Assembly: GCA_013002105.1 (NCBI GenBank)
Contig: JABDKS010000141.1
Coordinates: 1-11,349 of the forward strand
Origin: Pirellulaceae bacterium
Lineage (GTDB): Bacteria > Planctomycetota > Planctomycetia > Pirellulales > Pirellulaceae
DNA: 11,349 nt
Direction of reading: 5' to 3'
A program made the position numbers and the translations under genes. Below the pieces are notes generated by a model. That model had not been told where the DNA came from, searched no databases, and was given only the letters and a program-made list of their open reading frames with translations. Below, one piece after another: positions 1-9,404 of the stretch (positions are counted from its first letter, which is position 1; each line of letters opens with the position of its first letter).

Positions 1-247
1 GCAACAGCAGAAACATGCCTACGATACCCACCAGCGCTGCGATGCCTGTTTGCGACGGGCCCAGCATTTCGCTGGCGTGCGGCAGCAAGTGCAGCAACGA
101 AATGCCGAGCATCAAGCCACCCACGAAGCTGTTGAGCAACTGCGTGCGCAAGTGCGTCATCTTCATCATCGATGGCAAGTGTCCGCCCCCCACCGAGGCG
201 AGCACGATCAAGACGCAATAGACAATCAGTAGGGATTCAACAGCCAT
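1..247 (-). CDS. ZIP-family metal transporter, N-terminal part (cut by window edge)
   Basis: The first 82 residues are visible, reading leftward from an ATG at 247; the frame stays open to base 2. ZIP proteins are inner-membrane permeases that move Zn, Fe or Mn into the cytoplasm. Three hydrophobic segments can be seen: about residues 5-20, 37-56 and 67-82. The second contains SFVGGLMLGISLLHLLPHAS, the Gly-rich helix with a HxxP(E/H)A-type ending (H53, P56, H57) typical of ZIP transmembrane helices. The GGxLPS segment at 20-26 after helix 1 is also usual. No Shine-Dalgarno precedes the ATG; a TTG lies directly upstream at 250 as an alternative. It is 81 bp downstream of the outer-membrane protein gene on the same strand and could share its transcript. 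The metal ion cannot be assigned, because the metal-site helices 4 and 5 are outside the window. Confidence 0.82.
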   Translation of the reverse strand, partial: MAVESLLIVYCVLIVLASVGGGHLPSMMKMTHLRTQLLNSFVGGLMLGISLLHLLPHASEMLGPSQTGIAALVGIVGMFLLL

Positions 248-260
248 CAAGTACTTCAAA

Positions 261-1575: not shown

Positions 1576-2901
1576 CTATTGCTGCTTCTCGCTCGGAATA
1601 GGCCTGCCGTGAGGGTCTTCGTCCGGCGTTTCGGTGACTCGGTCCAGCTCATCTCGAAGCGGTCGGTCGGTAAAATGCTCGAAACGCTCTGCCTTGTCGT
1701 GAATTCGATTCGATTCAACGCTCGTCTGATCCACCAGGTACTGCTCCCACAACCGGTGCGACCGGATCAACTCGCGTGCTCGATCACGTCCTGCTTGAGT
1801 CAACTGTAGTGAGTCGCTGGCGATGATTTCTCCGCGTCGTCGCAACATCGACAGCGCGGCTGCCAAGACCCATCGGCCGGCGAAAAGATGCTCGGCCACC
1901 TCTGACCGCGACGGTTCGCCGATCGATCGTTCTTCGCGGCGATACAACATCGCGACCACATCGTCACAGAGAATCTGCAACGACAGGAGTTGACGGCGTC
2001 CCCATTTGATCGCGACACCGTGTTTGGGACTAAACCCTGCAGCCAGCAAAAACAAAATCCCTGCCATGACAGCCATCATGCCGGATGTCGTCGTGCTGCC
2101 ATATCCAAACCAGCCAGGCACAACGATAGCAGCCAAATGCCCTGTAACGGCCGACACAATCGCGACGGCAACACTGACGAAAATCATCACGGCCAAACGA
2201 TCCGTCAGCATATAAGCCGCCGCGGCTGGAACAACAAACATGGCGACCACCAAGATGCTGCCGACGCTTTCGAAACTGGCCACCGCTGTGACGCTGACTA
2301 AAACCATCAGCGCGTAGTGCATCAACTTGGCCGAAAAGCCCATCGTTGTCGCCAGCGCGGGATCAAACGATGAAATTTTCAACTCCTTAAAGAACAACAA
2401 CACGAATAATACGTTCACTAACGTGACGACGCTCAGGATCAGTGCGGCCTGCGGTACGGCGAAACCAAAAACCGGAATCATGTTTGCTGGTGTCGTTTCG
2501 ATCGAACCGTACAAAACGCAATCGGTATCCAGATGAACACGATCCGCTGCCTGCACCATCATCACCAGCCCCAGTGCGAACAGTGATGTGAACACAACTC
2601 CCATCGACGCTCCTTCGTCAACTTTCCCAACCCGACGGATCCACTCGGTAAAAAACGCCGTCAGAACGCCAACGATCACCGCTCCGATAAACATCGGAAT
2701 GCTGTTTCGACTATGGCTGACCAAAAACGCTACGACGATACCGGGCAAGACGGCGTGCGTCACCGCATCACCCAGCATGCTCAGTTTTCGCAACACCAAA
2801 AAATTACCCAACAAAGCCGACGCGGTCGCGCACAGCATGCCGACCACGACAATCCAGCCATCAAATGACCAACTCCAGTTCAACGCTGCTGACAGGTTCA
2901 T
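1576..2901 (-). CDS. troD: Metal ABC transporter permease TroD/MntD fused to a DtxR-like domain
   Basis: A 441-residue inner-membrane permease of the ABC-3 family (TroCD/ZnuB/MntB), normally about 280-300 residues. Residues 1-298 are the permease: repeated hydrophobic helices, the early LRKLSMLGDAVTHAVLPGI motif at 38-55 (the family's GDxxSHxxLPG signature), and FKELKISSFDP at 171-181, typical of the ATPase-contacting loop. Residues 303-436 form an extra cytoplasmic domain like DtxR/IdeR: a winged-helix-like part (311-370), then RSHRLWEQYL (H382, E386), IHDKAERFEHF (H401, E405, E408, H409) and DPHGRPIP at 429-436, a motif kept in DtxR/IdeR proteins. The domain lacks one of the two N-terminal ligands of MntR (D314 present, Ala where Glu is expected), and its putative recognition helix (GRWVLAAALSML) is hydrophobic. 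It probably pairs with TroC as a heterodimeric channel. Its ATG overlaps the troC stop (ATGA at 2898-2901). Confidence 0.93.
   Translation of the reverse strand: MNLSAALNWSWSFDGWIVVVGMLCATASALLGNFLVLRKLSMLGDAVTHAVLPGIVVAFLVSHSRNSIPMFIGAVIVGVLTAFFTEWIRRVGKVDEGASMGVVFTSLFALGLVMMVQAADRVHLDTDCVLYGSIETTPANMIPVFGFAVPQAALILSVVTLVNVLFVLLFFKELKISSFDPALATTMGFSAKLMHYALMVLVSVTAVASFESVGSILVVAMFVVPAAAAYMLTDRLAVMIFVSVAVAIVSAVTGHLAAIVVPGWFGYGSTTTSGMMAVMAGILFLLAAGFSPKHGVAIKWGRRQLLSLQILCDDVVAMLYRREERSIGEPSRSEVAEHLFAGRWVLAAALSMLRRRGEIIASDSLQLTQAGRDRARELIRSHRLWEQYLVDQTSVESNRIHDKAERFEHFTDRPLRDELDRVTETPDEDPHGRPIPSEKQQ
1594..1995 (-). other. C-terminal DtxR/IdeR-like metal-binding domain of TroD
   Basis: This part codes for TroD residues 303-436. 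By hand alignment to Corynebacterium DtxR, the equivalents of H79, E83, H98, E105 and H106 are all present, and the C102 position holds Glu, as at the matching site in MntR. The PHGxPIP motif is also present. The metal site therefore looks intact, while the putative DNA-recognition helix is alanine-rich and lacks polar contacts. I infer a sensor or gating role rather than DNA binding; this is not shown by the sequence alone. Confidence 0.75.
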
Positions 2902-4361
2902 GTCACCGCTCCTTCACCGCTGGTGGTCGATGACAGGTCGTGGGGACTTTGCGGCACCTGCATCATCAACTTCTGTTCCTCTAACAGATCCTCCAACTGG
3001 TCAATGATCTCCGGTTCCAACACATGTTCGATATCATCCGCGTCACGATCGACCAAACCGGGAGCCACGTCGGCGTAAGCAATCAAATACATTTCCCACA
3101 TTCGATGCTGCCGAGTCAATCGCGCCGCTTCGACGAAACCGGCACGCGTTAAGTGCACCCCATCGTTTCGACTTCGCACCAGGTCGTCGTCTTCCGCCCC
3201 CGCGATGACACGCAGCAATCGACTCCGATTCCAACTTCGCAACTGCAACAATTGATCAACCGAGACCGATGCCTTGGAATTAAATGTCCGAACCGCGCGA
3301 TCCGGCTCGATGACCTCGTAAATGGCTCGCAGCAGATGCTGGCGTTCGATGCGGTGATTCAAACGACGACGACGCATCCAGCGAATCAAAACCCCGCGAG
3401 ATGACCCTATCAACATGCTGATAAAGAAAAAGAACGCGCACACCAGCACAATCATCGCGCCCGACGGCACCCTGGGAAACATCGCACTAATCATTGCGCC
3501 GACAATGCAACCGACCGCACCAATTAAAACACTGTACAGAGCCATTCGCCAAAGCGTATCGGTCCAGAACCGCGCCGCGGCGGCAGGAATAACCATCAAA
3601 GCGATCATCAAGATCAAACCAACCGCCTGCAATCCCACAATCGTGATCAAGACCACGGCCGACATCAACGCGACATCCAACAACACAGTGGGAAACCCGC
3701 GAGAACCAGCGAACCCTTCGTCAAAACACAACAGTTTCAATTCTTTAAACAACAACATGCAAACAACAATCACGATCACCGATGCGCTCGCGATCAGTTG
3801 AGCATCGACGGCACGCATCGATGCCGTTTTGCCGTAGATAAAACTCTCCAATCCAGCCGCGCTCCCGGTTTCCATCTGCTGCACCACACCCAGCAATGCA
3901 ACACCGGCACCATAGAAAACGCTCAGAATGATCCCCAGCGCAGCATCCTCCTTTAACCGTGTGTGGTTTCGGATCCACAGAATTCCGCCCACACCCAACA
4001 AGCCACTGAGCGTTGCACCGCCCAACAGATACGGCAGCGACTTGCCGTCCAGACCCCAAGTGGTCGTCAAGATAAACGCGATCGCGATCCCCGGCAAACT
4101 AGCGTGGCTGAGCGCATCACCCATCAAGGCTCTTTTTCGCAGCAGCGTAAAACTGCCGACAAAACCGGCGCCCGCGCCAAGCATCGCCACTCCAAAAACG
4201 ACGACTCTTGTGTTGTAATCCTTCAACAGAAAAACTCGAGACCAGTCATCCGATCGGCTGTCCGCGAAGTCGACGATGTCGGCCGCAGCGACGATTCCCA
4301 AATCAGCCCACAAAGCAATGACGGACGCCGCCAATAGCAAAATCGCGGGACGACCGCTCAT
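2898..4361 (-). CDS. troC: Metal ABC transporter permease TroC/MntC fused to a DtxR-like domain
   Basis: A 487-residue inner-membrane permease of the ABC-3 family. An N-terminal hydrophobic segment (6-28) is followed by a short polar stretch. The transporter core runs to about residue 328, with LLRKRALMGDALSHASLPGI at 73-92 (the GDALSHASLPG signature) and FKELKLLCFDEGFA at 205-218 facing the ATPase. Residues 335-465 are a DtxR-like extension: a winged-helix-like part (341-405), HLTRAGFVEAARLTRQHRMWE (H419, E423) and ADDIEH (D442, E445, H446). The N-terminal metal ligands of MntR (Asp8, Glu11) are replaced by His and Arg, and the DtxR H98 position is Asp, so the metal site is partly eroded. 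The putative recognition helix NRSRLLRVIAGA is basic and could contact DNA. The fusion is about 190 residues longer than a plain permease. Start and stop both overlap neighbours by ATGA. Confidence 0.93.
   Translation of the reverse strand: MSGRPAILLLAASVIALWADLGIVAAADIVDFADSRSDDWSRVFLLKDYNTRVVVFGVAMLGAGAGFVGSFTLLRKRALMGDALSHASLPGIAIAFILTTTWGLDGKSLPYLLGGATLSGLLGVGGILWIRNHTRLKEDAALGIILSVFYGAGVALLGVVQQMETGSAAGLESFIYGKTASMRAVDAQLIASASVIVIVVCMLLFKELKLLCFDEGFAGSRGFPTVLLDVALMSAVVLITIVGLQAVGLILMIALMVIPAAAARFWTDTLWRMALYSVLIGAVGCIVGAMISAMFPRVPSGAMIVLVCAFFFFISMLIGSSRGVLIRWMRRRRLNHRIERQHLLRAIYEVIEPDRAVRTFNSKASVSVDQLLQLRSWNRSRLLRVIAGAEDDDLVRSRNDGVHLTRAGFVEAARLTRQHRMWEMYLIAYADVAPGLVDRDADDIEHVLEPEIIDQLEDLLEEQKLMMQVPQSPHDLSSTTSGEGAVT
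2967..3359 (-). other. C-terminal DtxR-like domain of TroC
   Basis: This part codes for TroC residues 335-465. The order IYEVIE helix, helix-turn-helix (369-395), LTRAG strand/helix, QHRMWE and DIEH follows the DtxR fold. By hand alignment, the helix-turn-helix stretch has the same length as in DtxR, with Arg379, Arg381 and Arg384 in the recognition helix. Metal ligands are only partly kept: H419, E423, E445 and H446 remain, Asp replaces Cys102/Glu99, and Asp replaces His98. The closest known precedent is Chlamydia trachomatis YtgCR, a permease-repressor fusion. Confidence 0.72.
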
Positions 4362-5164
4362 AATGTCTGCTCCCGCCGCCGCATCGCTTCGGTCACTTCA
4401 TCCAGCAGCGTCAGCCGACCGCCATAGGTCTTTTGCAAATTATCCGGTGTGAACACTTCCTCGACCGGGCCGTGACTGACTATTCGCATGTTCAACAAGA
4501 CGACGTAGTCAAAGTACTCCGGAACGCTTTGCAAGTCGTGATGAATTACCACCGCCGTTTTTTGCCTTGATTTCAGTTCACGCAAAATGTCCACGATCGC
4601 TTGCTCGGTTGCCGCGTCGACCGCCGCAAATGGTTCATCCATCAAATACAAATCGGCATCTTGCACCAACGCACGAGCAAGAAAGGTTCGCTGTTGCTGG
4701 CCACCCGAGAGTTGACTGATCTGACGATTCGCCAAATCCGCAATCCCGACCTGTTCCAATGCAACAAGTGCCTGTTGACGATGCTTCTTTCGGACCGGCA
4801 TGCACCACCCAATATCGTCGTAGAGCCCCATCGTCACGACATCCAACGCACTGACGGGAAATTGCCAATCGACACTTTCACGTTGCGGCACGTAACCGAC
4901 ACGACGACGATTGTGAGCATACGTATCGCCAAAAACACGAACGCGACCGGACGCCCGCGGAATCAAATCCATCACCGCTTTCAACAACGTACTCTTGCCC
5001 GCACCATTGGGACCCACCACGCCAATTAGCTGACCGGCCGGCAAATCAAAACCGACATCCCAAATCACGGGTTTGCGATGGTAGGCGACCGTTAGATCGT
5101 AAATCGAGAGCGGACAATCGGGATTCGCTTGCTTGGCCGGCGACTGATGCGTTGGTGAGATCAT
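4358..5164 (-). CDS. troB: Metal ABC transporter ATP-binding subunit TroB/MntB
   Basis: A 268-residue cytoplasmic ATPase that powers metal import through the TroCD channel. Every motif is present: Walker A GPNGAGKST at 51-59, Q-loop YVPQRE at 91-96, signature LSGGQQQR at 152-159, Walker B LYLMDEP at 172-178 and the switch histidine in VIHHDL near 209. The text YVPQRESVDWQFPVSALDVV around the Q-loop is characteristic of the Zn/Mn (ZnuC/TroB/MntB) branch, where W-FP-SV follows the Q-loop. Length is normal for the family. The ATG at 5164 overlaps the troA stop and the TGA at 4358-4360 overlaps the troC start, so translation is probably coupled through all four genes. Nothing is missing. Confidence 0.96.
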   Translation of the reverse strand: MISPTHQSPAKQANPDCPLSIYDLTVAYHRKPVIWDVGFDLPAGQLIGVVGPNGAGKSTLLKAVMDLIPRASGRVRVFGDTYAHNRRRVGYVPQRESVDWQFPVSALDVVTMGLYDDIGWCMPVRKKHRQQALVALEQVGIADLANRQISQLSGGQQQRTFLARALVQDADLYLMDEPFAAVDAATEQAIVDILRELKSRQKTAVVIHHDLQSVPEYFDYVVLLNMRIVSHGPVEEVFTPDNLQKTYGGRLTLLDEVTEAMRRREQTL

Positions 5165-6222
5165 CGCGCCGCTCCCGTTGCGTCCGTCGTATCCTCCGAT
5201 CCGGATTCCTGGCTCGTCTCAACGCCCAGCTTTCCGTTGAGTCCCTTGGGATCGGCTTTTCCACCGAGCGCTAATGTCACGGTTGTAATATTGTGATCCA
5301 GCATCCCAATGTACGTTCCTTCATAGGTACCACGGGCCCCCATCGCATCGCTGAATAATTCACCCCCCACGACAACGTCATGCCCCTTGGATGCCGCACC
5401 TTCGATCAACGCGTCGATGTTCTTTCGCGAAACACTGCTTTCGATAAAAACCGCTTTCACACCCTTGTCGACAAGCATGTCGACAAGCTTATTGATGCGT
5501 AATACGCCGGCCTCCGACTCGGTCGATAGACCCTGTACTCCCAAAACCTGCAAACCATACGCGCGACCGAAATAGTTAAACGCATCGTGTGAGGTGACAA
5601 GAATCCGACTGCCCTCCGGGATGGTCGCGATGGAGTCAACTCCGTACTGATGCAACCTGTGCAACTCCATACGCAACTTTGCTGCCTCAACTTGATAGTC
5701 ATCGGTGTGCGCCGGATCGAATTCCAACAATGCGTTTTCGACGGCGCTGATACATCGCGACCAAGCACTGACATCCATCCAGACATGCGGATCGTAGTGC
5801 CCGGCAAAGTCCTCCGGTTCCAACAACACGGATTCATCGATCATTTCGGTCACCGCGAACACGGGCTTCGTTCTACCCATTTTGATCAACGTGTCACTCA
5901 TTTTCCCTTCTAGCATCAACCCGCAATAAAACATGATGTCGCTGCCCATCATTGTTTGCACGTCGTCGCGGGTCGGTTTGTAGAGATGCGGATCGACTCC
6001 CGACCCACAAATCTGAGTGACTTTGACATGTTCGCCCCCGACAGTGCGGACAATGTCGGCAACCATTCCAACTGTGGCAACGGCGTTGATCGGATACTGC
6101 CCGGAGAATGCCGAATCCCGCCCGGTCGTGCCACTACTGGTGTCGGACGAGTCTCGATTGCATCCAACAAGTGCGACGGTCAATGCCAAAGCCAGAGAAA
6201 CGAAACAAAATGACGTGCGCAT
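5161..6222 (-). CDS. troA: Metal-binding lipoprotein of the ABC importer, TroA/MntA-like (cluster A-1)
   Basis: A 353-residue periplasmic binding protein tethered by lipid. Residues 1-20 are a lipoprotein signal ending in lipobox LVGC, with Cys21 as the anchor. The mature part shows the cluster A-1 motifs in order: DPHLYKPT (H79), DPHVWMD (H146), VTSHDAFNYFGRAYG (H212), IESSVSRKN and GGELFSDAMG (D292). The ligand set His-His-His-Asp matches Treponema TroA and Chlamydia YtgA; strictly Mn-type proteins such as PsaA have Glu in third place. The His-rich loop of ZnuA is absent. I chose the ATG at 6222, which begins the signal peptide; the frame extends to a TTG at 6255 near the operator region, with no signal logic. 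No Shine-Dalgarno is seen. The acidic tail after residue 335 is low complexity. Expression is probably controlled by MntR from the boxes 42-84 bp upstream. Confidence 0.94.
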   Translation of the reverse strand: MRTSFCFVSLALALTVALVGCNRDSSDTSSGTTGRDSAFSGQYPINAVATVGMVADIVRTVGGEHVKVTQICGSGVDPHLYKPTRDDVQTMMGSDIMFYCGLMLEGKMSDTLIKMGRTKPVFAVTEMIDESVLLEPEDFAGHYDPHVWMDVSAWSRCISAVENALLEFDPAHTDDYQVEAAKLRMELHRLHQYGVDSIATIPEGSRILVTSHDAFNYFGRAYGLQVLGVQGLSTESEAGVLRINKLVDMLVDKGVKAVFIESSVSRKNIDALIEGAASKGHDVVVGGELFSDAMGARGTYEGTYIGMLDHNITTVTLALGGKADPKGLNGKLGVETSQESGSEDTTDATGAAR

Positions 6223-6263
6223 GGGCAATTCGATTAATAGTGGCGAGTACGGCAATCTATAGT

Positions 6264-6279
6264 TTTAGCCAATGCTAAA
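6264..6279. promoter_or_regulatory. Candidate MntR operator, box 1
   Basis: TTTAGC-CAAT-GCTAAA is a perfect palindrome with 6-bp arms and a 4-nt spacer. The core TAGC-N4-GCTA is the same as in the MntR box I recall for E. coli mntH. It lies in the 108-bp gap between divergent troA and mntR, 42 bp upstream of the troA ATG. A weak minus-strand -10-like element, TATAGA (6256-6261), lies beside it on the troA side, so bound MntR would block troA transcription. The assignment to MntR is inference from motif and position. Confidence 0.75.
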
Positions 6280-6290: not shown

Positions 6291-6306
6291 TGTAGCCATT
6301 GCTAAA
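6291..6306. promoter_or_regulatory. Candidate MntR operator, box 2
   Basis: TGTAGC-CATT-GCTAAA repeats box 1 with one arm mismatch (G for T). An 18-bp unit, TAGCCAATGCTAAACTTT at 6266-6283, recurs at 6293-6310 with a single change, exactly 27 bp further on. The box ends 24 bp before the mntR ATG at 6331, so it is placed for autoregulation, or for cooperative binding with box 1. Confidence 0.7.
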
Positions 6307-6330: not shown

Positions 6331-6810
6331 ATGGGGTGGTTGGTCCGTCACTTTGCTGGAGAAAAACGCTTGAAACGCTCGTCCGGCACCAAAAACCGGT
6401 TTCGCCGAACCCGAAACGACCATGCCCAAGAGACAGCCGAAGACTATGTCGAAGCGGTCGACAGCATCCTGCGCGACCAGGGCGTATGCCGCAGCCGGGA
6501 CTTGGCGAAACAATTCGCTGTCAGCCATGTCACCGTCCATCGCATCGTCAATCGGCTGCACCGCGAAGGATTCTTGAACACCGAACCCTATCAACCGATC
6601 ACGCTGACTCCGAAAGGAAAGCGACTGGCCAAGAAGTCACGTCAGCGCCACGAAATCGTGTACCGATTCTTGCTATCCATCGGTGTCGATCCAGAAGTCG
6701 CAGCGATCGACGCAGAAGGAATCGAACACCACGTTAGCCAACAAACGCTCGACCGACTAGCGGAATCGATCACGCTGGACAAACAATCGACGCGCTCACG
6801 CGACCGCTAA
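6331..6810 (+). CDS. mntR: Manganese-responsive transcriptional repressor MntR (DtxR family)
   Basis: A 159-residue DtxR-family regulator. The winged helix-turn-helix spans about residues 35-95 (AEDYVEAVDSIL, then RDLAKQFAVSHVTVHRIVNR) and the dimerisation/metal domain about 96-150 (RHEIVYRFLL, DAEGIEHHVS). All six metal ligands of Bacillus subtilis MntR (D8, E11, H77, E99, E102, H103) appear here as D38, E41, H107, E129, E132 and H133: a constant offset of 30, so the spacing is exact. Asp at the first position is the MntR type (DtxR has Met there), which favours Mn. It is a short form with no SH3-like third domain. Start: the ATG at 6331 has no Shine-Dalgarno, whereas a TTG at 6370 in the same frame has GGAG 8 nt upstream and would give 146 residues; either keeps the whole domain. 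It diverges from troA across the tandem boxes. Confidence 0.95.
   Translation: MGWLVRHFAGEKRLKRSSGTKNRFRRTRNDHAQETAEDYVEAVDSILRDQGVCRSRDLAKQFAVSHVTVHRIVNRLHREGFLNTEPYQPITLTPKGKRLAKKSRQRHEIVYRFLLSIGVDPEVAAIDAEGIEHHVSQQTLDRLAESITLDKQSTRSRDR
6358..6361 (+). promoter_or_regulatory. Shine-Dalgarno favouring an alternative TTG start of mntR at 6370
   Basis: GGAG stands 8 nt before TTG 6370-6372, an ideal spacing. The ATG at 6331 has no comparable sequence upstream. Since most genes here lack such a site, this one could mark the true start, removing 13 residues ahead of a basic N-terminal tail. Confidence 0.4.
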
Positions 6811-7535
6811 CCATTTGCGCATTCGGCATCTTGTTCGTATCGGTACCCCGCACCGTAGACAGTTTGGATGATTCTGGGGTTCTTCGGATCATGCTCGATC
6901 CGCTTTCGCAATTGGCTGATCGTTTGGTCCAACGTTCGGCTATTGGGGATGTGGTTTTCTTCCCAACCAACGCGGAATAGTTCATGCCGGTCCACCACCT
7001 CACCGGGCTTGCTTGCGAGCAACTGCAGGATTCGCAATTCACGCGGCGTCAATTCGATCGCGTGTTCGTCACGACGTGCTCGCAATTGACGTGGCAACAC
7101 TTCCAAATCGTTCATCCAAAAATCGTGTTGCGGTAACCGCGGCGATTCTTCCTCGCAGCCAAAACCACTGATCGAGCGTCGAGCAACGGCACGTATTCGA
7201 GCCAAAACCTCTTTCGCGCCAAATGGTTTGACGATGTAGTCGTCGGCACCCAGTTCCAGACCTACGACCTTATCGATCTCTTCTGCCTTGGCGGTGATGA
7301 ATAATATCGGCATCCGTGGCTGGGTTTGCCGAAAGTGCCGGCAGAGATCGTAACCGCTTAACCCCGGCATCATGACATCCAAGCACGCTAGATCGGGCGG
7401 CTGATTATCGAATAGGAATTTAGCTTGCTGGCCATCTGCTGCTTCGGTCACCTGGTGACCATCGCTTCGTAGCACTTCGGCCAACGCCGCTCGTGTATGC
7501 GTATCATCTTCGGCAACCAGAATTTTTAGACTCAT
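6807..7535 (-). CDS. OmpR/PhoB-family response regulator
   Basis: A 242-residue cytoplasmic DNA-binding regulator of a two-component system. The receiver domain (1-120) has the acidic pair D10-D11, phospho-acceptor D53 in LACLDVMMPG, T81 and K103 in IVKPF. After a linker (120-138), a winged-helix effector of the OmpR type fills 140-235, with ELTPRELRILQLLASKPGEV and ending in the family's VYGAGYRYE. All key residues are intact, so it should be phosphorylated by the kinase encoded just upstream, whose stop overlaps this ATG (ATGA at 7532-7535). Its own stop codon overlaps the mntR stop by 4 bp on the opposite strand. The target genes are not evident from the sequence. Confidence 0.95.
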   Translation of the reverse strand: MSLKILVAEDDTHTRAALAEVLRSDGHQVTEAADGQQAKFLFDNQPPDLACLDVMMPGLSGYDLCRHFRQTQPRMPILFITAKAEEIDKVVGLELGADDYIVKPFGAKEVLARIRAVARRSISGFGCEEESPRLPQHDFWMNDLEVLPRQLRARRDEHAIELTPRELRILQLLASKPGEVVDRHELFRVGWEENHIPNSRTLDQTISQLRKRIEHDPKNPRIIQTVYGAGYRYEQDAECANG

Positions 7536-9310
7536 CGTTCGTTAACCCGTTGCGTTGGAGGCGAGAGAACTTCGTCGTCATCAGTGCTGATCACAGGGAT
7601 ACTGAGTTGAAAACACGCACCACGGTCACTCGGAATCAGTTCAAGCTGTCCACCATGGCGAATCGCCGCGTTTCGAGCGATCGTCAGACCAATACCCGTG
7701 CCACTGGGCGCGTTGATCGAATCATCCAAACGAGCAAACGGGCGAAAAACCATCGAGCGAAATCGACGGCTGATTCCCTGGCCGTGATCGCTGACCGTGA
7801 CAATTAATTCGTCATCGTCCAACCGCGATTTCACCGCGACATAGTTTCCTTCGGCGGCGTACTTTTCGACGTTGCTGAGCAAATTCACCAACACCATTTC
7901 AAATATATCCGCGTCGATCTTCACACAGCAATCGGTTTTCAGATCACGGTGGACCTCCACACCCGACCTCGTAAAACTCGGTTCAAATTGCCCGAGCGTC
8001 TCTTCGATCAAATCATTTGGGTTGGCCGGAGCTAGCTGGGGCCCACGTTGTTGCTTGCCGCCACGAATCATCTCCAACACGCCGGAGACCAGCCGACTGA
8101 GCCGGCGCGTTTCGGTGTCAATTACGCTCAGCCGACGTTGTACCGAGTCGCGTGTTTCACCGCCCGGAAGTTTTTCCAAATCCGATTCGGCCAACTCTGC
8201 GTAGAGCCGAATGTTCGTCAGTGGTGTTCGCAGTTCGTGAGATACCTGGCCCGCAAAACTAACACGATTTCTTGCCGCTCGCATCTGTCGTTGTACGCCT
8301 GTCAACACGTAGACGCCCAAACCCAACAGCACGATCCCGATTCCAGCCAAGGAGGCCAGTAACGGCAATGCGCTGTACTGCGGAATCAGCGGAGCCGTGC
8401 TATGAAACTCCCACTGCCAAGCCGATAGCGGTGCCGACATCGGCGTGACTGCCGCTGGTTGACCAACACGATCCCCTTCGTCGCCCCAGCGATAGACGAT
8501 CTGTTTGGCTTCGTCGACCAACGCGGTAAAACCGGGCGTCACAGCATCAAACTGCGACCGCGAATCAGATCGGGGAATGGAATCGGGCAGAGCGGCCGTT
8601 AAATCTGACGTCCAGCGAGGTCGCTCCAGTACGATCCCCACAGCCGCGCCGTCTTCGCGTGGCAGCCACAATATCAACTGCATCCCTTGATCCATGTACC
8701 AAACTTGCCATTGATGTTCGCCGGTTTTCAACTGTGGTCGGGGAGTCGAACGAACATAGTTGGACGTCTTCTGAGCAAGGATGGCTTTGGTAACTTGCTG
8801 CACCGCCTGCTTGCTGCTGCTCTTGCCCCCTTTGAAAGATTTCCCCACAGATTGGCTCTGGTCGTCGAACGCGGACGAATCGTCGGTGGATTCGGCTCCC
8901 GGTTCAACGATTGCGACCAATTCGGAACGACCACTGATCATTCCTGGCAATGCCGCGTACAACGCCACCGCATCAGGATCATCCGGGTTGGGACGCTCAG
9001 GATAAAGTAGCAGGCCATCAGAACTGACATACAGTCCTTGCCGCACAACCGGCACGGTCCGCTGCAACTGCTGTAATTGCTCGATCACATTCGTTGTCTT
9101 CGCCAGCGATCCCGTCAGGCTCCTGGCATAATCGTCGAATAACTTTGCAGTCGACCGGTCGATTTCTACCAAACGCGATCGCAACAGCAGTCTTAGTTGA
9201 TCGCGTGCGCGTTCCTGTGACGTCGCCATTGCAGTAGCCGACACCCATCCCAACAGCACCAAAGGTGCTGCAACCAGAACAAGCAACGCTAGCAACAATC
9301 TTCGCGGCAT
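7532..9310 (-). CDS. Membrane-bound sensor histidine kinase
   Basis: A 592-residue inner-membrane sensor kinase. Transmembrane helix 1 is at about residues 4-28 and helix 2 at about 315-337. Between them lies a periplasmic sensing region of some 285 residues with a hydrophilic Ser/Asp/Gly-rich insert at about 140-172; I do not recognise its ligand. The kinase core follows: HisKA with SHELRTP (H358 as phospho-acceptor), N-box VNLLSNVEKYA near 474-484, G1 DHGQG at 508-512 and G2 GTGIGL at 537-542, all intact. No HAMP domain is obvious between helix 2 and HisKA. I chose ATG 9310 because it begins the first membrane helix; the frame extends to a TTG at 9364, which lies inside a terminator hairpin. 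No Shine-Dalgarno is visible. It is followed by its response regulator with an ATGA overlap. The signal is unknown. Confidence 0.92.
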   Translation of the reverse strand: MPRRLLLALLVLVAAPLVLLGWVSATAMATSQERARDQLRLLLRSRLVEIDRSTAKLFDDYARSLTGSLAKTTNVIEQLQQLQRTVPVVRQGLYVSSDGLLLYPERPNPDDPDAVALYAALPGMISGRSELVAIVEPGAESTDDSSAFDDQSQSVGKSFKGGKSSSKQAVQQVTKAILAQKTSNYVRSTPRPQLKTGEHQWQVWYMDQGMQLILWLPREDGAAVGIVLERPRWTSDLTAALPDSIPRSDSRSQFDAVTPGFTALVDEAKQIVYRWGDEGDRVGQPAAVTPMSAPLSAWQWEFHSTAPLIPQYSALPLLASLAGIGIVLLGLGVYVLTGVQRQMRAARNRVSFAGQVSHELRTPLTNIRLYAELAESDLEKLPGGETRDSVQRRLSVIDTETRRLSRLVSGVLEMIRGGKQQRGPQLAPANPNDLIEETLGQFEPSFTRSGVEVHRDLKTDCCVKIDADIFEMVLVNLLSNVEKYAAEGNYVAVKSRLDDDELIVTVSDHGQGISRRFRSMVFRPFARLDDSINAPSGTGIGLTIARNAAIRHGGQLELIPSDRGACFQLSIPVISTDDDEVLSPPTQRVNER

Positions 9311-9340
9311 CGACCAATCAAACTGACATGGGGAGACAGG

Positions 9341-9404
9341 ACAAAAAAACACCGTCGTGAACAACGCCTGCTACCGGCATAGCACGCATAGACACGACGG
9401 TGTT
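9341..9404 (-). terminator. Strong intrinsic terminator of the VWA gene
   Basis: Read on the minus strand, AACACCGTCGTG (9404-9393) pairs perfectly over 12 bp with CACGACGGTGTT (9359-9348), and a run of seven T follows (complement of the A-run at 9343-9349, partly inside the stem). The 33-nt loop holds an inner stem, TGCTA/TAGCA around TGCCGG. It starts about 30 bp beyond the VWA stop and ends about 30 bp before the sensor-kinase ATG. Confidence 0.88.

What the first reader, a model, noticed from the sequence alone, without database searches (positions are those of the whole stretch)
1594..3359. Both permeases of one metal importer carry a DtxR-type repressor domain
TroC (residues 335-465) and TroD (303-436) each end in a winged-helix plus dimerisation/metal domain of the DtxR family, and a stand-alone MntR is encoded next door: three metal-sensor domains in one locus. 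A single permease-repressor fusion (Chlamydia YtgCR) is known and reported to be cleaved to release a repressor. Tails on both channel halves would put a paired sensor under the pore, because DtxR domains dimerise and the permeases also pair. This suggests metal-dependent closing of the channel, or release of two repressor fragments.
Basis: partly seen in the sequence, partly recalled or inferred. Interest (0 to 1): 0.72.

Follow-up and report, generated by a model that had tools for sequence, protein, structure and literature searches.

The report
Metal sensors on both importer channels
In this planctomycete-type locus, both membrane halves of a manganese-type importer end in a repressor-like metal-sensing domain held on a rigid helix, which looks more like a built-in brake on uptake than a gene switch, although nobody has tested it.

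Summary
Observation confirmed. TroC (2898-4361, minus) and TroD (1576-2901, minus) are ABC-3 permeases that each end in a DtxR-family metal-binding/dimerisation domain (PF02742, E 1.5e-11 and 2.7e-21); predicted folds put a winged helix before it. A stand-alone MntR lies next door, with two operator-like palindromes between mntR and troA.

It is not peculiar to this window: 45 of 74 fetched permease loci (chosen for hits, window included) and 9 of 69 sampled Planctomycetota genomes have adjacent permeases that both carry tails.

Metal-ligand positions are nearly invariant. The spacer from the last membrane helix to the first ligand is exactly 19 residues in 104/104 TroC and 110/110 TroD homologues. 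The recognition motif of stand-alone repressors is not kept, though TroC has a conserved motif of its own. All 20 sampled genomes with tailed permeases also have a PF02742 match outside them. The same domain sits on ATPases, beside FTR1-FtrD iron-uptake genes in the three loci scanned.

Best reading: cytosolic metal feedback brakes on the transporter, not mainly released repressors. The mechanism is inferred, not shown. Fusion on one permease is known (Chlamydia YtgCR); I found no report of both.

The parts
1576..2901 (-). troD: ABC-3 permease (441 aa) with C-terminal DtxR-type tail
   Evidence: ORF; Pfam; AF2 pLDDT 88.6
2041..2850 (-). TroD permease domain, residues 18-287
1960..2019 (-). TroD coupling spacer: invariant Gly295 to first ligand-position residue Asp314 (19 residues)
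   Evidence: 19 residues in 110/110 homologues; one helix 296-325 in the model
1594..1995 (-). TroD tail, residues 303-436: winged helix plus metal/dimerisation domain
   Evidence: PF02742 368-436 E 2.7e-21; DtxR 13-134 aligned; IdeR rmsd 1.8
2898..4361 (-). troC: ABC-3 permease (487 aa) with C-terminal DtxR-type tail
   Evidence: ORF; Pfam; AF2 pLDDT 87.2
3408..4208 (-). TroC permease domain, residues 52-318
3336..3395 (-). TroC coupling spacer: invariant Gly323 to first ligand-position residue His342 (19 residues)
   Evidence: 19 residues in 104/104 homologues; one helix 324-351 in the model
2943..3359 (-). TroC tail, residues 335-473: winged helix plus metal/dimerisation domain
   Evidence: PF02742 405-462 E 1.5e-11; profile hits SloR, ScaR, DtxR, MntR; fold (weak for the metal domain)
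4358..5164 (-). troB: ATPase of the importer, no DtxR tail
   Evidence: PF00005 E 2.4e-30
5161..6255 (-). troA: metal-binding protein (ZnuA/TroA family); longest frame, the start may lie further in
   Evidence: PF01297 E 7.4e-69
6264..6279 (.). MntR-operator-like palindrome 1 (TTTAGC-N4-GCTAAA)
   Evidence: 0 mismatches, none in 200 shuffles; TAGC-N4-GCTA enriched upstream of troA homologues
6291..6306 (.). MntR-operator-like palindrome 2 (one mismatch)
6331..6810 (+). mntR: stand-alone DtxR-family repressor, divergent from troA
   Evidence: NF008273 165 bits against cut-off 153; PF01325 and PF02742

Best explanation
A TroABCD importer of the Mn/Zn/Fe (ABC-3) family, probably for Mn(II) because the neighbouring repressor is MntR. 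Each of its two different permeases ends in a DtxR-type metal sensor fixed to the last membrane helix by a rigid 19-residue helix. When cytosolic metal rises, ions occupy the sensors, the two tails pair or change their pairing beneath the pore, and the pull or lock on the last membrane helices stops the transport cycle: substrate transinhibition, quick and reversible. MntR, bound to the two palindromes before troA, shuts down transcription on a slower scale. Shown here: the domains, ligand-position residues, spacer constancy, neighbouring MntR and the palindromes. Inferred: metal identity, cytosolic side (from homologues), pairing of the tails, MntR as the protein that binds the palindromes, and inhibition as the outcome.
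For: 1) Ligand positions H79, E83, E105, H106 (DtxR numbers): 49, 49, 49, 50 of 50 TroD tails (one row gapped at H79 and E83), 54, 55, 54, 55 of 55 TroC tails, 13/13 single-permease tails and 5/5 ATPase tails. 2) Gly to first ligand = 19 residues in 104/104 TroC and 110/110 TroD homologues (104 and 110 of the 120 listed by each search), and in 50/50, 55/55 and 13/13 tails from fetched loci; the models show one continuous helix there. 3) The stand-alone recognition segment (consensus LgVspgTVTsMlKtL) is replaced in the tails; no PF01325 match. The TroD tails of L101 and L102 have a much shortened winged helix yet still match PF02742 (L101; G043 = L102). 4) All 20 sampled genomes with tailed permeases hold a PF02742 match outside a permease, against 19 of 49 others. 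5) Of 16 adjacent permease pairs with at least one tail in the survey, 9 have both; 3 more genomes have the tail on a permease without an adjacent partner, where a homodimer would again give two tails per pore. 6) Five loci carry a PF02742 domain on an ABC ATPase; FTR1-FtrD genes lie beside it in the three scanned (L111, L113, L119). 7) In Bacillus anthracis MntBC, truncating the cytosolic extension of the last permease helix left membrane expression unchanged and abolished activity (PMC8487065, passages). 8) MetNI and ModBC are precedents for transinhibition by paired C-terminal domains (PMC10710835, passages).
Against: No transport, binding or complex data. YtgR of Chlamydia is cleaved and binds DNA (PMC5599777, PMC7755916, passages). 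TroC keeps a conserved RSW-x-R-x-RL segment where the recognition helix lies (R375 and W377 invariant in 104), and winged-helix net charge is higher in TroC (mean +3.3) and TroD (+2.2) than in stand-alone proteins (+0.9; SD about 2 in each): DNA or another acidic surface may be bound. Winged-helix length is no strong argument: TroD is 67-70 in 83 of 110, and TroC's 76-111 is largely a loop after helix 1. The 19-residue spacer is also kept in Verrucomicrobial TroC-type proteins (106 of 109 matched by a pattern), where winged-helix length is fixed too (74 in 100 of 106), so the spacer alone does not rule out repressors. 7 of 16 tailed adjacent pairs have only one full tail, and 66 of 96 permease matches have none. 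The operator core was found before only 12 of 72 SBP genes, not in the close relatives L001-L004. ATPase tails lack H98 (0 of 5). Known transinhibition domains sit on ATPases, not permeases.
Confidence: 0.5

Rival explanations
1. YtgCR-like: one or both tails are cut off and act as free metal-dependent repressors, TroC's tail more likely than TroD's.
For: YtgR precedent (PMC7755916, PMC5599777, PMC6504234, passages). The winged-helix fold persists and TroD matches DNA-bound IdeR structures. TroC keeps a conserved RSW segment at the recognition helix.
Against: Rigid invariant spacer with no loose cleavable stretch; no PF01325 match in either tail; much shortened winged helix in some TroD tails; PF02742 match outside the permeases in 20/20 sampled genomes with tails; operator-like sites beside MntR.
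Confidence: 0.17
2. Membrane-tethered regulator: uncut tails bind DNA at the membrane, so that the loaded transporter reports metal status to promoters.
For: Net positive charge of TroC and TroD winged helices; conserved TroC recognition segment; helix-turn-helix fold.
Against: The stand-alone recognition motif is not kept in the tails; some TroD winged helices are much shortened; the ATPase-borne versions have a gap at the recognition helix.
Confidence: 0.1
3. Metal acceptor or buffer: the tails catch incoming ions under the pore and hand them on, making import one-way, without regulating it.
For: Nearly invariant ligand positions and a place just after the last membrane helix.
Against: A dimerisation-type sensor fold and rigid coupling are more than a buffer needs; the domain also sits on ATPases beside another importer.
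Confidence: 0.12
4. Vestigial or purely structural tails that only help the permeases pair.
For: Single-tail and short-tail lineages exist; a TroD tail was probably lost in the L012/L107 lineage (support 81-88).
Against: Ligand positions are kept almost without exception over distant relatives.
Confidence: 0.05

Closest known systems
Chlamydia trachomatis YtgCR (CT069/CTL0325)
   Same: ABC metal permease with a C-terminal DtxR-type domain in an SBP-ATPase-permease-permease operon (PMC5599777, PMC6504234, passages).
   Different: In Chlamydia the fusion is described for YtgC; YtgR is cleaved, binds DNA, and is called the only identified iron-dependent regulator there. Here both permeases have tails and a separate MntR exists.
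DtxR / IdeR / MntR / SloR repressors
   Same: PF02742 domain, ligand pattern and, for TroD, fold.
   Different: Membrane-anchored, no PF01325 match, recognition motif not kept.
MetNI and ModBC transinhibited ABC importers
   Same: C-terminal cytosolic domains that bind the imported substrate and pair (PMC10710835, passages); works like, as proposed here.
   Different: Those domains are on the ATPase and of other folds; here they are on the permeases.
OpuA
   Same: A positively charged, membrane-near helix-turn-helix in an ABC importer that tunes its activity (PMC10710835, passages).
   Different: On the ATPase, senses osmotic change; no DtxR metal domain is mentioned there.
PsaBC / MntBC manganese ABC importers
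   Different: Homodimeric (PMC11779740, abstract); no sensor domain mentioned in the passages I saw.

Membership tests
ABC-3 metal importer (TroABCD/MntABC type) | SBP, ATPase and ABC-3 permeases in one operon | tested here: met
   PF01297, PF00005, PF00950 x2 above cut-offs; overlapping genes
DtxR family (metal-binding/dimerisation domain) | PF02742 above the gathering score | tested here: met
   TroC 44.6, TroD 75.8 bits, cut-off 27
DtxR family (DNA-binding domain) | PF01325 profile match | tested here: not met
   No hit at E<=1 in TroC or TroD; MntR hits. The winged-helix fold itself is seen in the models
DtxR family | Metal-ligand residues | tested here: met
   TroD D314, H382, E386, H401, E405, E408, H409; TroC H342, H419, E423, D438, D442, E445, H446 (first ligand position placed through). 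Roles of the positions recalled
DtxR family | Dimerisation and metal-dependent DNA binding | not testable with these tools
   No complex prediction or assay available
YtgCR-type permease-repressor fusion | ABC-3 permease with C-terminal DtxR domain | tested here: met
   both TroC and TroD
YtgCR-type permease-repressor fusion | Cleavage that frees a DNA-binding repressor | not testable with these tools
   Sequence shows a rigid 19-residue spacer and altered recognition segment
YtgCR-type permease-repressor fusion | Tail is the only regulator of its kind identified in the cell (as stated for Chlamydia) | tested here: not met
   MntR at 6331-6810; 20/20 sampled genomes with tailed permeases have a PF02742 match outside them
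Transinhibited ABC importer (MetNI/ModBC) | Substrate-binding paired C-terminal domain on the ATPase | tested here: not met
   troB has no extra Pfam domain; the domain is on the permeases. It is on an ATPase in other loci
Transinhibited ABC importer (MetNI/ModBC) | Uptake inhibited by cytosolic substrate | not testable with these tools
   Needs transport assay
MntR stand-alone repressor (6331-6810) | NCBIfam MntR equivalog NF008273 | tested here: met
   165 against cut-off 153 bits

The most novel reading that the evidence does not exclude
The DtxR repressor fold has been turned into a plug-in feedback brake for metal ABC importers, often two copies per transporter: on both permeases of heterodimeric systems, on the one permease of presumably homodimeric systems (with a longer, perhaps FeoA-like end), and on the ATPase of FTR1-FtrD/MacB-type iron systems. 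Chlamydia's YtgCR would then be a reduced descendant in which the brake works as a released repressor.
Probability: 0.3. Interest if true: 0.82.

Novelty: new variant of a known kind. Interest (0 to 1): 0.6.

Why it matters
No ABC transporter of the ABC-3 metal family is known to me (recalled, not searched exhaustively) to be switched off directly by the metal it imports; the control described is of transcription. If the tails are brakes, a large set of planctomycete and verrucomicrobial importers has post-translational feedback built from a repressor fold, and the odd Chlamydia YtgCR gains an evolutionary setting. The prediction can be tested directly by mutating ligand residues in one operon.

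Tried and rejected
Own genome of the window: not held, so prevalence comes from relatives. Paper searches aimed at a dual fusion, or at DtxR plus permease in Planctomycetes or Verrucomicrobia, gave no report of it (search listings read; two searches returned nothing at all; held library only, most subscription journals missing). Thompson et al. 2012 (PMC3387080) is not held, so the cleavage data are taken from later papers. The Chlamydia sequence could not be brought in: a third protein search, with a Verrucomicrobial TroC-type protein, showed no Chlamydia name among its 120 best of 1501 (most rows bear no organism; the named ones are Verrucomicrobial apart from one MAG named Pseudoalteromonas). 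Internal start in troC as a source of a free repressor: considered because of Met330, rejected because the family consensus there is L. The repeat finder missed the operators; I saw them by eye and a pattern search counted them. Winged-helix length as evidence for lost DNA binding: weakened on recount. A tree of all tails (150 rows) was poorly resolved; the thinned one (72 rows, five long or odd rows dropped and groups sampled at random) puts permease tails on one side (SH-aLRT 91, not starred), TroC 94, TroD 97, single-permease 98; it does not settle whether fusion happened once (all fused tails held together: p-AU 0.279; TroC+TroD: 0.841). Covariation between the two tails and a model of the complex were not done: too few pairs and no complex prediction.

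Rows dropped: leave out nine loci, five that repeat a genome (L015, L038, L041, L095, L098) and four short ones (L045, L048, L049, L050) that show a tailed permease with its partner unseen; one search then used 58 of 130 permease rows, picked by hand. In one search I left out the 15 weakest ABC-3 rows (E 8e-10 or weaker) and joined split matches in G013, G043 and G057; other fragments stayed as separate matches. 'PF02742 within 450 bases downstream' misses tails that keep only a winged helix. In one search the PF02742 matches outside tailed permeases were taken as stand-alone by position and frame, not scanned one by one; G012 and G029 (ATPase fusions) were not counted as stand-alone. The 74 loci were chosen for a TroC or PF02742 hit and give no prevalence. 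The 30 listed loci and the match lists were cut short by the tool.
Full report
What is there. The window carries troA (5161-6255 -), troB (4358-5164 -), troC (2898-4361 -) and troD (1576-2901 -) as overlapping genes, and a divergent mntR (6331-6810 +). Pfam gives ABC-3 plus Fe_dep_repr_C (PF02742) in both permeases, over the cut-off, while PF01325, the DNA-binding profile, matches only MntR. MntR passes its NCBIfam cut-off.

Metal sites. Structural offsets (for example TroD 310 on DtxR 6; TroC 335 on DtxR 3 and 337 on MntR 3) put TroD D314 and TroC H342 at the first-ligand position (DtxR M10, MntR D8; roles of these residues recalled). Among 123 tails (with 59 stand-alone proteins in the same alignment), positions 79, 83, 105 and 106 are H, E, E, H nearly everywhere: TroD 49, 49, 49, 50 of 50; TroC 54, 55, 54, 55 of 55; single-permease tails 13 of 13; ATPase tails 5 of 5. 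Position 98 is H or D in all TroC and single-permease tails and in 49 of 50 TroD tails, but in none of the 5 ATPase tails. Position 102 is E or D in most, H in 8 of 13 single-permease tails, and C in 5 of 5 ATPase tails (the iron-type residue of DtxR, recalled). The first ligand varies more: D in 44 of 50 TroD; H in 38 and N in 13 of 55 TroC.

Spacer and winged helix. From the invariant glycine at the end of the last membrane helix to the first ligand there are 19 residues in 104/104 TroC and 110/110 TroD homologues and in 50/50, 55/55 and 13/13 tails of fetched loci. The stretch from first ligand to H79, which holds the winged helix, is 76-111 in TroC, largely through a loop after helix 1, and 67-91 in TroD with 83 of 110 at 67-70; stand-alone proteins have 69 or 71 in 49 of 59 cases, range 66-83. 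Length is thus a weak argument. The stronger one is sequence: the recognition segment of stand-alone proteins is not kept in tails, PF01325 does not match, and the TroD tails of L101 and L102 have a much shortened winged helix. Against a simple loss of DNA binding: TroC has its own conserved RSW segment, TroC and TroD tails are positively charged there, and Verrucomicrobial TroC-type relatives keep a fixed winged-helix length (74 in 100 of 106 matched, 109 examined) and the same 19-residue spacer.

How common. Tail searches gave 408 and 630 proteins and 1501 for a Verrucomicrobial TroC-type tail; some database entries there already name the product as permease plus DtxR regulator, so the single fusion is known to annotators. 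In 69 Planctomycetota genomes, 62 have an ABC-3 match and 41 a PF02742 match; 20 have at least one tailed permease (30 of 96 permease matches): 9 with adjacent permeases both tailed, 1 (G033) with two tailed permeases apart, 5 with the first only, 2 with the second only, 3 with a tailed permease that has no adjacent partner. Among 74 permease loci, the window included (chosen for hits), 45 have both tails, 4 one tail and a bare partner, 6 one full and one short tail, 4 a single tailed permease, 13 a single permease with a tail about 80-100 residues longer, 2 none. Of three of these 13 scanned, one (L086) had a FeoA match, below its cut-off, and two (L088, L106) had none, so 'FeoA-like' is only a lead. 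Nine fetched loci from the phylum of a Verrucomicrobial genome (L051-L059) all have both tails. In the permease tree, bare TroD of L012 and L107 sits among tailed TroD (support 81-88): one-tail systems can arise by loss.

Other carriers. In five loci (L111, L112, L113, L119, L120) a PF02742 domain sits at the end of an ABC ATPase. Neighbours were scanned in three: L111, L113 and L119 have FTR1-FtrD, L111 two FtsX/MacB-type permeases, L113 a Fur gene. This looks like a different importer family using the same sensor, on the subunit where MetNI and ModBC carry theirs.

Transcription has its own likely repressor. Two palindromes TTTAGC-N4-GCTAAA lie at 6264-6279 and 6291-6306 between troA and mntR, none in 200 shuffles. 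The core TAGC-N4-GCTA occurs 14 times in 25.2 kb upstream of SBP genes and 7 times in 1.42 Mb elsewhere (binomial 2e-20; related loci are not independent). It was found before 12 of 72 SBP genes, and in 6 of the 9 permease loci with an MntR match above 60 bits; the close relatives L001-L004 lack it. All 20 genomes with tailed permeases have a PF02742 match outside them, against 19 of the other 49.

Mechanism. A rigid, length-fixed link from the last membrane helix to the first metal ligand, conserved ligands, an altered DNA-binding part and an independent repressor suggest that the tail acts on the transporter. That region is functionally sensitive: in B. anthracis MntBC, cutting the cytosolic extension of the last permease helix abolished activity without loss of membrane expression (PMC8487065, passages). 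Transinhibition by paired C-terminal domains is established for MetNI and ModBC, and OpuA uses a charged helix-turn-helix near the membrane to tune transport (PMC10710835, passages). I therefore favour a metal-driven brake at about 0.5; pairing of the tails and the direction of the effect remain inference.

Novelty. The single fusion is known from Chlamydia YtgCR, where YtgR is cleaved and represses (PMC5599777, PMC7755916, PMC6504234, passages). I found no report of tails on both permeases in searches. This is a new variant of a known kind, recurrent in the groups sampled, with an untested and interesting function.

Noticed in passing
L111:4465-5568, L112:5238-6344, L113:4369-5475, L119:12941-14842, L120:2800-5622: ABC ATPases with a C-terminal Fe_dep_repr_C domain and a cysteine-rich end; FTR1-FtrD genes beside them in the three loci scanned.
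   Followed up: partly
L085-L090, L093, L094, L096, L097, L099, L103, L106: Single ABC-3 permease genes whose tail is about 80-100 residues longer; of three scanned, one (L086) has a FeoA match below cut-off.
   Followed up: partly
L068, L069, L070, L081, L082, L083: TroC with a full tail but TroD with a shortened tail of 84-96 residues; in L081 the remnant still resembles a winged helix.
   Followed up: partly
L091:3743-5431 and L110:5802-6794: PF02742 proteins with two FeoA stretches each, the first as a 563-residue frame overlapping a second DtxR-type frame.
   Followed up: no
window 2-259 -: Start of a ZIP-like metal transporter running off the left edge (PF02535, below cut-off).
   Followed up: no
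window 6807-9364 -: Response regulator and histidine kinase genes on the opposite strand; the regulator's 3' end overlaps that of mntR by 4 bases.
   Followed up: no
L019:6944-8846: Tail-less permease pair in a Chloroflexaceae MAG whose permeases fall beside planctomycete ones with full or short tails: transfer and loss, or binning error.
   Followed up: no
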